From Porphyrobacter sp. (GTDB lineage Bacteria; Pseudomonadota; Alphaproteobacteria; Sphingomonadales; Sphingomonadaceae), in the NCBI GenBank assembly GCA_016125555.1, contig WGLN01000013.1, forward strand, positions 25,546 through 89,545: a stretch of 64,000 nucleotides of DNA. Direction: 5' to 3'. Each line of letters starts with the position of its first letter. The first letter of the stretch is position 1. The notes beneath the pieces were generated by a model, which saw nothing but the letters and a program-made list of their open reading frames with translations, searched no databases and was not told the origin of the DNA. Shown here piece by piece: positions 27,644 to 28,882 of the stretch. The position numbers and the translations under genes are program-made.

Positions 27644-27955
27644 ATGGAAGGCATGATCGCTCTGATGATCCCGATCATCGCGCTCAGCATTCCGCTGGTC
27701 GCCTTGTGGACCAAGCACCAGCAGAAGCTCGCCGAGATGCAGGTCGGCGCCACCGCCGAACACACCGCCGAGAAGGCCGCGCAATATGCCAGCCACATCC
27801 AGCGGCTCGAAGACCGGGTGCAGGTGCTCGAACGGATCATCACCGACCGCGGCTACGACATCGCCACCCAGATCGAGGCACTGCGCGACCAGCGCCGCGT
27901 GGACGAGAGCGATGCGGGCGTGCCGCTCGGCTTCGAGAATAAGGAACGGGTGTGA
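27644..27955 (+). CDS. psp-linked small membrane coiled-coil protein 1
   Basis: N-terminal TM; RLEDRVQVLERIITDRGYDIATQIEALRDQ. Confidence 0.85.
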   Translation: MEGMIALMIPIIALSIPLVALWTKHQQKLAEMQVGATAEHTAEKAAQYASHIQRLEDRVQVLERIITDRGYDIATQIEALRDQRRVDESDAGVPLGFENKERV

Positions 27956-28314
27956 TGGACCCTCTTGTCCTCCAAACCCTCGCCCCGGTCATCGGCATCG
28001 GCGTCGTCAGCATCTCGGCCGGCTGGGTGCTCACCACCTGGCTGCGGATCAAGAACGGTTATCCGCTCGACGGCGCCTGGGGCCAGGCGGTCTATCCCAA
28101 GCATGACGGCGAGAGCCGCCAGGAGACCGCCCGCCTGACGCGCGAGAACGGCGAACTGCGCGAGGAGCTGATCATGCTCAAGGACCGTCTCGCCAATGTC
28201 GAGCGGATCGTGACCGACAGCGGCTACCATGTCGGCGCCGAGATCGAGGCCCTGCGCCGCGATGCCGCGCCGCTCGCTTCGCCCGCGCGCCAGAGCGAGG
28301 GAGCCGCGCAATGA
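27955..28314 (+). CDS. psp-linked small membrane coiled-coil protein 2
   Basis: N-terminal TM; MLKDRLANVERIVTDSGYHVGAEIEALRRD; start overlaps upstream stop. Confidence 0.85.
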   Translation: MDPLVLQTLAPVIGIGVVSISAGWVLTTWLRIKNGYPLDGAWGQAVYPKHDGESRQETARLTRENGELREELIMLKDRLANVERIVTDSGYHVGAEIEALRRDAAPLASPARQSEGAAQ

Positions 28315-28631
28315 GCTTTTGGACCGCCATCGTCGTCATGGCCGTCGTGTGGGGCATCGTCACGATCTGGACGCGCCGGCACGACCGCGAGCTGGGCTTG
28401 ACCCGCGACGAGGACGGCAATCCCGTCTTCGCCCCGCGCGACGAGGGCGGCGCACGCACCGAACTGGAGGCCGCGCGGCGCGAACTCGCCGACCTGCGCG
28501 AACGGGTGAAGGTGCTCGAACGGATCGCCACCGACGGCAACACCAGCGACGCACGCGAGCGCGCCCGCATCGCCGCCGAGATCGAAGCCCTGCGGGCACT
28601 GCCCGCATCTCAGGAGGACAAGAGCGAATGA
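28311..28631 (+). CDS. psp-linked small membrane coiled-coil protein 3
   Basis: N-terminal TM; DLRERVKVLERIATDGN...AAEIEALRAL; 4-nt overlap with upstream gene. Confidence 0.85.
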   Translation: MSFWTAIVVMAVVWGIVTIWTRRHDRELGLTRDEDGNPVFAPRDEGGARTELEAARRELADLRERVKVLERIATDGNTSDARERARIAAEIEALRALPASQEDKSE

Positions 28632-28882
28632 TGACGCCCCTTCTCGATCCCACCATCGTCATGGCCGCCACCTGCCTCGTCGGCATCGCCGTGGTCGCCG
28701 CCGCCCTGCTGCGCGCCTGGCAGGGCTGGCTCGACCTCAAGCGCCAGGAACTCGAGCGGGTCGCTCCGGGCCGGACGGGCGAGCCCGACAGCCCCGGAAT
28801 GGGCACCGCCCGCATCGAGCTCGCCGATCTCAGGGAACGCATCCGCAAGCTCGAGGCGATCGCCAGCGGGGTCGAATTGTGA
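28628..28882 (+). CDS. psp-linked small membrane coiled-coil protein 4
   Basis: MMTPLLDPTIVMAATCLVGIAVVAAALLRAWQGW...RIELADLRERIRKLEAIASGVEL; 4-nt overlap. Confidence 0.82.
   Translation: MMTPLLDPTIVMAATCLVGIAVVAAALLRAWQGWLDLKRQELERVAPGRTGEPDSPGMGTARIELADLRERIRKLEAIASGVEL

What the first reader, a model, noticed from the sequence alone, without database searches (positions are those of the whole stretch)
27644..28882. Tandem array of four small membrane proteins repeating the PspB/PspC C-terminal module
Directly after pspABC, four overlapping or adjacent genes encode an N-terminal TM helix plus a coiled coil ending in a recognisable motif. The copies are RLEDRVQVLERIITDRGYDIATQIEALR, MLKDRLANVERIVTDSGYHVGAEIEALR, DLRERVKVLERIATDGN...AAEIEALR and DLRERIRKLEAIASG. 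PspB (LDERMDTVERLVAADDPSF) and PspC (DVDRRLAAVESHYVSSNPRLTAEIERLR) of the same operon share it. Known E. coli PspB and PspC end in a comparable heptad (RIQALESILDAEHPNW; REMERYVTSDTF). This suggests stepwise duplication of a PspB/PspC-type signalling coiled coil, giving a PSP sensor with several alternative membrane subunits that could compete for PspA.
Basis: partly seen in the sequence, partly recalled or inferred. Interest (0 to 1): 0.85.

Follow-up and report, generated by a model that had tools for sequence, protein, structure and literature searches.

The report
Array of extra phage-shock membrane adaptors
In bacteria of the Sphingomonas/Erythrobacter family, the membrane-stress (phage shock) operon carries a row of usually three to seven extra small membrane proteins that share a tail peptide with the sensor PspC, and in many species a predicted longer form of the effector PspA carries the same peptide, so one docking signal may be shared by most of the operon's proteins.

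Summary
Four genes (27644-28882) follow pspABC, each encoding one N-terminal membrane helix and a cytosolic coiled coil. They are not a local curiosity: relatives of the first gene occur in 125 of 151 genomes of the family, and 92 completely bounded operons hold 1-8 copies (median 4) of six ancient paralogue classes in a loosely conserved order, behind a PspF/sigma-54 promoter.

The relationship to PspB/PspC is real but distant. Classes a, a2, b, g and d share the PspC-type tail. Only the first gene resembles PspB along its length, below every curated cut-off. The fourth gene links only to class d. The classes are much closer to each other, and to stand-alone genes in other Sphingomonadales, than to pspB or pspC: an expanded sister family rather than stepwise copies.

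Unexpected addition: the pspA frame extends upstream in 60 of 119 loci, encodes a conserved peptide (R-L-x-x-E-I-E-x-L-R) matching the end of PspC and the array tails, and is followed by a conserved internal ribosome site. This predicts long and short PspA.

Most likely function (inferred, untested): membrane adaptors competing for the PspA/PspB/PspC docking site. 'PspB duplicates' were noted in one line by Ravi et al. 2024. New variant of a known kind.

The parts
24563..25618 (-). pspF, sigma-54 enhancer-binding activator, divergent from the operon
   Evidence: NCBIfam TIGR02974 476.6 bits, cut-off 443.55
25719..25734 (+). sigma-54 promoter TGGCACGGCGGTTGCA upstream of the whole operon
   Evidence: exact consensus, one of two exact matches in 64 kb; at least 10 of 11 consensus bases upstream of pspA in 68 of 78 named relatives, 0 of 78 shuffled
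25777..25962 (+). small leader gene (61 aa, one hydrophobic segment), first gene after the promoter
   Evidence: sequence; tblastn relatives in 18 of 80 named loci; no family
25964..26242 (+). predicted N-terminal extension of PspA (93 aa if GTG 25964 is the start)
   Evidence: frame open into pspA; motif-bearing extension in pspA's frame in 57 of 57 hits, none in other frames, no stop; 60 of 119 loci with a relaxed motif; pN/pS 0.06-0.58 in the closest pairs
26108..26137 (+). RLDEEIEALR tail-like motif inside the PspA extension, followed by the conserved RSPTPT
26231..26234 (+). GGAG ribosome-binding site for the short (canonical) PspA start
   Evidence: strong SD 4-mer at this spacing in 60 of 60 extension-bearing loci against 11% background
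26243..26932 (+). pspA (canonical start)
   Evidence: TIGR02977 277.4 bits
26936..27241 (+). pspB
   Evidence: TIGR02976 83.9 bits
27238..27612 (+). pspC, ending in RLTAEIERLR (27580-27609)
   Evidence: TIGR02978 122.9 bits; tail conserved in 92% of 119 relatives
27644..27955 (+). array gene 1, class a (103 aa): TM helix, coiled coil, ATQIEALR tail; the most PspB-like
   Evidence: TIGR02976 29.1 bits, E 8.8e-7, under the 51.7 cut-off; class HMM 143 bits
27952..28314 (+). array gene 2, class b (120 aa; ATG at 27955 also possible): TM, GYPLDGAWGQAVYPK loop, coiled coil, AEIEALR tail
   Evidence: class HMM 143 bits; PspC-tail profile ranks it first after PspC, E 9.9e-5
28311..28631 (+). array gene 3, class d (106 aa): TM, coiled coil, AAEIEALR tail
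   Evidence: class HMM 88 bits; profile hits
28628..28882 (+). array gene 4, class e (84 aa): TM and conserved C-terminus ARIELADLRERIRKLEAIASGVEL, no tail motif
   Evidence: class HMM 111 bits; class e related to d only, 94%
28879..29055 (+). zeta, 58-aa hydrophobic protein overlapping gene 4, unrelated to the module
   Evidence: 13 members among the 121 loci analysed; no Pfam or NCBIfam family

Best explanation
The array is a lineage-specific family of PspB/PspC-related membrane adaptors made together with PspA, PspB and PspC from one PspF/sigma-54 promoter. Each protein is held in the inner membrane by one helix with its C-terminus in the cytoplasm. Genes 1-3 end, like PspC, in a coiled coil plus an EIExLR tail. 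In Yersinia the cytoplasmic segment of PspC is held by the PspBC complex when the system is off and binds PspA when it is on (published). I infer that the array tails use the same docking surfaces. They would form mixed coiled-coil pairs with PspB, PspC and each other, add membrane docking sites for PspA, and so set how easily PspA leaves PspF and how much PspA is recruited. The different membrane helices and juxtamembrane loops would allow different inputs. Where long PspA is made, its own tail-like peptide would compete for the same sites. Shown here: gene order, promoter, conservation, topology signature, shared module, extension reading frame. Inferred: all binding and competition.
For: Operon: pspF, sigma-54 site, overlapping genes, no terminator found. 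Conservation: 125 of 151 genomes, 1-8 copies per bounded operon, same layout in named Sphingomonas, Sphingopyxis, Novosphingobium, Erythrobacter and Qipengyuania records. Module: PspC-tail relationship 92-97% with reversed controls; window ranking; tail pattern confined to the psp operon. Topology: 97-100% have an N-terminal TM helix, about 0-0.2 K/R before it and 2.1-3.5 K/R in the 12 residues after it, as in PspB. Purifying selection. Mechanism precedent: in the on state the PspC cytoplasmic domain binds PspA, releasing PspF (PMC5596341). PspA extension.
Against: No binding, expression or phenotype data exist for any array protein. Scores to PspB are below curated cut-offs, and genes 2-4 have almost none. 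Class e lacks the tail, although it is among the most constant members. Relatives in other families are often not next to psp, so the protein family may have a function of its own. AlphaFold models are low confidence (pLDDT 65-66) and show only helices; no complex could be modelled.
Confidence: 0.5

Rival explanations
1. The array proteins are stress effectors or scaffolds: they co-assemble into a membrane lattice that anchors PspA rods or stabilises the bilayer directly, with no part in signalling to PspF.
For: In Yersinia PspB and PspC have an effector role separate from regulation (PMC5596341; PMC3467454). Many different helices with one coil type suit a mixed lattice. Variable copy number suits dosage rather than a fixed signalling route.
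Against: The tail resembles the PspC segment that in Yersinia is the PspA-binding, regulatory part, and the same peptide appears in the long PspA frame. Nothing tests lattice formation.
Confidence: 0.22
2. The classes are input-specific sensors: each membrane helix and juxtamembrane loop (for example the conserved GYPLxxxWG loop of class b) detects a different insult, and the shared tail gives one output.
For: Classes are ancient and distinct, the juxtamembrane parts are class-specific and conserved, and several classes coexist in most genomes.
Against: No periplasmic domain: N-termini are only a few residues long. Copy number varies even within genera. No ligand or stress data.
Confidence: 0.17
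3. Only a coincidence of small one-helix coiled-coil proteins that drifted into the operon; similarity to PspB/PspC is generic coiled-coil similarity.
For: Gene 4 has no detectable PspB/PspC link; one unrelated window ORF scores between true members in the PspC-profile scan; class b against the reversed PspC control reaches 50%.
Against: Other reversed controls, equal spacing of the coil-to-tail segment, fixed place in the operon across the family, tail motif confined to the operon; true generic coiled coils in the PDB score only E 0.03 or worse.
Confidence: 0.08

Closest known systems
PspB (TIGR02976 / PF06667)
   Same: One N-terminal helix, cytosolic C-terminal coiled coil of the form L..R...hER, same operon; gene 1 aligns over its length (29 bits).
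   Different: Below curated cut-offs; genes 1-3 continue into a PspC-type EIExLR tail that PspB lacks (0 of 120 PspB).
PspC (TIGR02978), C-terminal cytoplasmic segment
   Same: Same coil-to-tail segment with the same spacing (VE/LE to EIExLR) in classes a, a2, b, g and, with an insertion, d; 92-97% profile probability.
   Different: No PspC domain (PF04024 not hit); one helix only.
'PspB duplicates' of Ravi et al. 2024 (PMC11237479)
   Same: One sentence reports duplicated PspB in the psp operon, example AOL22920.1, and PspC fused to a divergent C-terminal PspB.
   Different: No description there of an ordered multi-class array, its tail motif, its family-wide spread or a PspA extension in the passages found. 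I could not check whose protein AOL22920.1 is.
PspD / PspG accessory Psp proteins of enterobacteria
   Same: Small accessory members of the Psp regulon.
   Different: No match to any PspD or PspG model in Pfam or NCBIfam at E up to 10.

Membership tests
PspB | Score above NCBIfam TIGR02976 cut-off (51.7) or Pfam PF06667 cut-off (25.6) | tested here: not met
   gene 1: 29.1 and 14.8 bits; gene 3: 9.7 bits (TIGR02976); genes 2 and 4: no match
PspB | Single N-terminal TM helix, C-terminus in cytoplasm | tested here: met
   hydrophobicity and positive-inside counts for all classes, same pattern as PspB; prediction, not experiment
PspB | Cytosolic coil alignable to PspB's coil | tested here: inconclusive
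   35-85% for a, a2, b, g, d against 0.5-6% reversed controls; e 0.3%
PspB | Binds PspC and is needed for induction | not testable with these tools
   needs experiment
PspC | PspC membrane domain (PF04024) | tested here: not met
   not hit by any array protein
PspC | C-terminal cytoplasmic segment with RLxxEIExLR-type tail | tested here: met
   genes 1-3: class profiles 92-97%, tail pattern present; gene 4: not met
PspC | C-terminal segment binds PspA | not testable with these tools
   known for Yersinia PspC only (PMC5596341)
PspD / PspG | Match to PspD or PspG models | tested here: not met
   no match at E up to 10 in Pfam and NCBIfam
Psp operon (PspF/sigma-54 regulon) | Divergent pspF, sigma-54 promoter, contiguous same-strand genes | tested here: met
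   co-transcription itself not measured

The most novel reading that the evidence does not exclude
In the Erythrobacter/Novosphingobium branch the operon encodes two PspA isoforms. The long one carries, ahead of its membrane-binding helix, a copy of the peptide with which PspC and the array proteins end. It would act as a built-in competitor (or self-docking tether) for the PspA/PspC/array interaction, making the PSP switch a tail-peptide competition network with most of the operon's products taking part.
Probability: 0.3. Interest if true: 0.8.

Novelty: new variant of a known kind. Interest (0 to 1): 0.6.

Why it matters
The PSP response is known mainly from enterobacteria with one PspB and one PspC. 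A whole bacterial family that adds an ordered set of usually three to seven further related adaptors to this pair offers a natural test of how PspB/PspC-type tails control PspA, which is still an open question. The PspA extension, if translated, gives a direct handle: a defined ten-residue peptide to mutate, in PspA, PspC or the array, to ask who competes with whom.

Tried and rejected
Homology by solved structures: no PspB or PspC structure was found, only generic coiled coils at E 0.03 or worse. AlphaFold models of genes 1 and 2 gave helices at low confidence, and Foldseek of gene 2 found nothing, so they are not used. Recent tandem duplication was rejected as the main origin: classes span genera, and the five class-a copies of L093 do not cluster as recent copies. 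PspD/PspG-like identity was rejected. The extended pspA frame was first taken for a GC-rich open frame without meaning; the frame test (57 of 57), the conserved motif and pN/pS in close pairs argued otherwise. Over all 302 extension pairs the median pN/pS is 0.79, which I attribute to distant, poorly alignable pairs, so only the motif and close pairs are relied on. A 12-residue PSSM scan missed the PspC tail because PspC ends one residue too early for it; the pattern scan corrects this. Expression data for sphingomonads: none found in the papers searched. Class- and phylum-wide searches score few candidates per genome, so absence outside Sphingomonadales is only a weak statement.

Full report
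WHAT IS THERE. The window lies in a 3.07-Mb genome whose closest protein relatives are named Erythrobacter and Porphyrobacter, in the GTDB family that also holds Sphingomonas and Novosphingobium (names). On the + strand stand pspA 26243-26932, pspB 26936-27241 and pspC 27238-27612, all above NCBIfam cut-offs. pspF is divergent at 24563-25618. Then come the four genes of the finding: 27644-27955 (103 aa), 27952-28314 (120 aa), 28311-28631 (106 aa) and 28628-28882 (84 aa), joined by 4-base overlaps. A fifth, unrelated 58-aa hydrophobic gene (28879-29055) and sufE (29099-29509, PF02657) follow.

OPERON AND CONTROL. An exact sigma-54 promoter, TGGCACGGCGGTTGCA, lies at 25719-25734 between pspF and pspA. 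Only two exact matches occur in 64 kb. In 78 named relatives the best site upstream of pspA has at least 10 of 11 consensus bases in 68; in shuffled sequence it does in none. No terminator-like site was found on the coding strand from 25500 to 30600. Co-transcription is therefore likely but not measured.

FAMILY-WIDE ARRAY. Gene 1 has relatives in 125 of 151 sampled genomes of the family (79 of 96 genera), often several per genome and in tandem; gene 3 in 98 of 151. pspA itself is found in 141. I took the psp region of 120 relatives, called the gene chains and sorted the products with iterated HMMs. In 92 loci bounded by sufE there are 1 to 8 array genes, most often 4 or 5. They belong to six classes (a, a2, b, g, d, e) in a loosely fixed order: a/a2/b/g first, d then e at the end. 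The window is a-b-d-e-zeta, one of the common layouts. Similar layouts recur in named Sphingomonas, Sphingopyxis, Sphingorhabdus, Novosphingobium, Erythrobacter, Qipengyuania and Tsuneonella records (that set was chosen by class b, so it says nothing about absence). Some genomes have no array gene in the chain found (L045). A few chains broke early for technical reasons.

AGE AND ORIGIN. On a tree of 87 array proteins the class labels need 8 changes, against 52.7 when shuffled, so the classes predate the genera; with 95 columns many forks are open and single branches should not be trusted. Other families of the same order have relatives, one or two per genome. They are 72-90 aa, of the form TM + LEERVRVLERIxTDKxxxLxxEIDxL. 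Of the loci inspected, two stand directly after pspABC and a second pspC-like gene, the others elsewhere. Rare relatives exist in one other alphaproteobacterium beside coaBC/dut and in one other proteobacterial family, two of its three hits beside a tadA-like gene. I read this as expansion of one PspB/PspC-related gene inside the operon rather than repeated copying of pspB or pspC.

ARE THEY RELATED TO PspB/PspC? Gene 1 matches the PspB model over its length at 8.8e-7 (29 bits; cut-off 51.7). A class-d protein of a congener reaches 40 bits. Profile-profile comparison of cytosolic parts only, with column-reversed controls: to the PspC segment a 92%, a2 94%, b 97%, g 92%, d 92% (reversed 2-8%, except b 50%); to PspB 35-85% (reversed 0.5-6%); e below 1% to both. 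The classes match each other at E 1e-14 to 1e-25; e matches d at 94%. Against all 730 window ORFs, profiles made without the window sequence put gene 1 and gene 2 next after PspB, and gene 2 next after PspC (E 9.9e-5). Gene 3 and gene 1 score weakly with the PspC profile, and an unrelated ORF intervenes. So genes 1-3 are distant relatives of PspB/PspC with PspB topology and a PspC tail, and gene 4 is a relative of gene 3. None should be filed as PspB or PspC.

TOPOLOGY AND SELECTION. 97-100% of members have one N-terminal hydrophobic helix, almost no K/R before it and 2.1-3.5 K/R in the 12 residues after it, as in PspB. This predicts C-terminus in the cytoplasm. dN/dS between close relatives is mostly 0.1-0.5. 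One comparison, class d of the window against G035, is near 1, and classes a2, b and d tend to evolve faster than pspB and pspC.

THE UNEXPECTED PART: PspA. While checking profile hits I found that the pspA frame stays open upstream of MGIFSRTRDI and carries SRLDEEIEALRRSPTPT (window 25964-26242). Over 119 upstream regions the motif occurs only in the frame of pspA (57 of 57, never with a stop between, at varying distance of 11-44 residues). With a slightly relaxed motif 60 loci have it. The closest pairs show pN/pS 0.06-0.58. All 60 also have a strong ribosome-binding 4-mer (GGAG in those printed) just upstream of the canonical ATG (background 11%). The simplest reading is two starts and two PspA isoforms. 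In the named set all 24 extension-bearing loci have class a right after pspC, and none of the 47 with a2 or b first has it; this is confounded by phylogeny. The ten residues RL(D)xE(I/V)ERLR match the last ten of PspC (RLxAEIERLR). An HMM of the extension core finds, in the window, PspA's extension, then PspC, one unrelated ORF, gene 2 and gene 3. The pattern [LIFMV]..[EQ][IV][ED].LR occurs five times in 108,979 translated residues, all in this operon. The pattern is post hoc and the peptide is short, so common descent is not shown; it may be convergence on one binding site.

MECHANISM. Published for Yersinia: PspB and PspC form a complex; [quoted passage not shown] not held). I infer that array tails enter this competition and that long PspA carries a competing peptide. 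Shown: genes, promoter, conservation, shared segment, reading frame. Not shown: any contact, any effect.

KNOWN WORK. Ravi et al. [quoted passage not shown] The 2022 phyletic survey reports paralogues of PspA and PspC (PMC9239133). I found no text describing this array or a PspA extension, in a library that lacks most subscription papers.

Noticed in passing
window 30384-30399 (+): The only other exact sigma-54 consensus in the window (TGGCACAGCGGTTGCT) lies about 90 bases before a gene-transfer-agent-type 3-TM holin (30490-30903, PF11351, E 4e-31): a possible second PspF/sigma-54 target. My simple search did not find the holin gene in the named relatives' loci, so its conservation is untested.
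   Followed up: partly
window 25777-25962 (+): Small one-helix leader gene (FFxTKLGQAALASIAAM...) between the sigma-54 promoter and pspA, with relatives in at least 18 of 80 named loci; its stop lies next to the predicted start of long PspA.
   Followed up: partly
window 28879-29055 (+): zeta, a 58-aa hydrophobic protein ending in TRPGGLxG, overlapping the last array gene; present in a minority of relatives, no known family.
   Followed up: partly
L285/L167 (minus strand), L286, L288, L291: Stand-alone relatives of the array proteins in other Proteobacteria, beside coaBC/dut, tadA-like or methyltransferase-like genes rather than psp.
   Followed up: partly
L082, L135, L149, L155, L269, L270: Some relatives have two pspC-like genes in the operon.
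   Followed up: no
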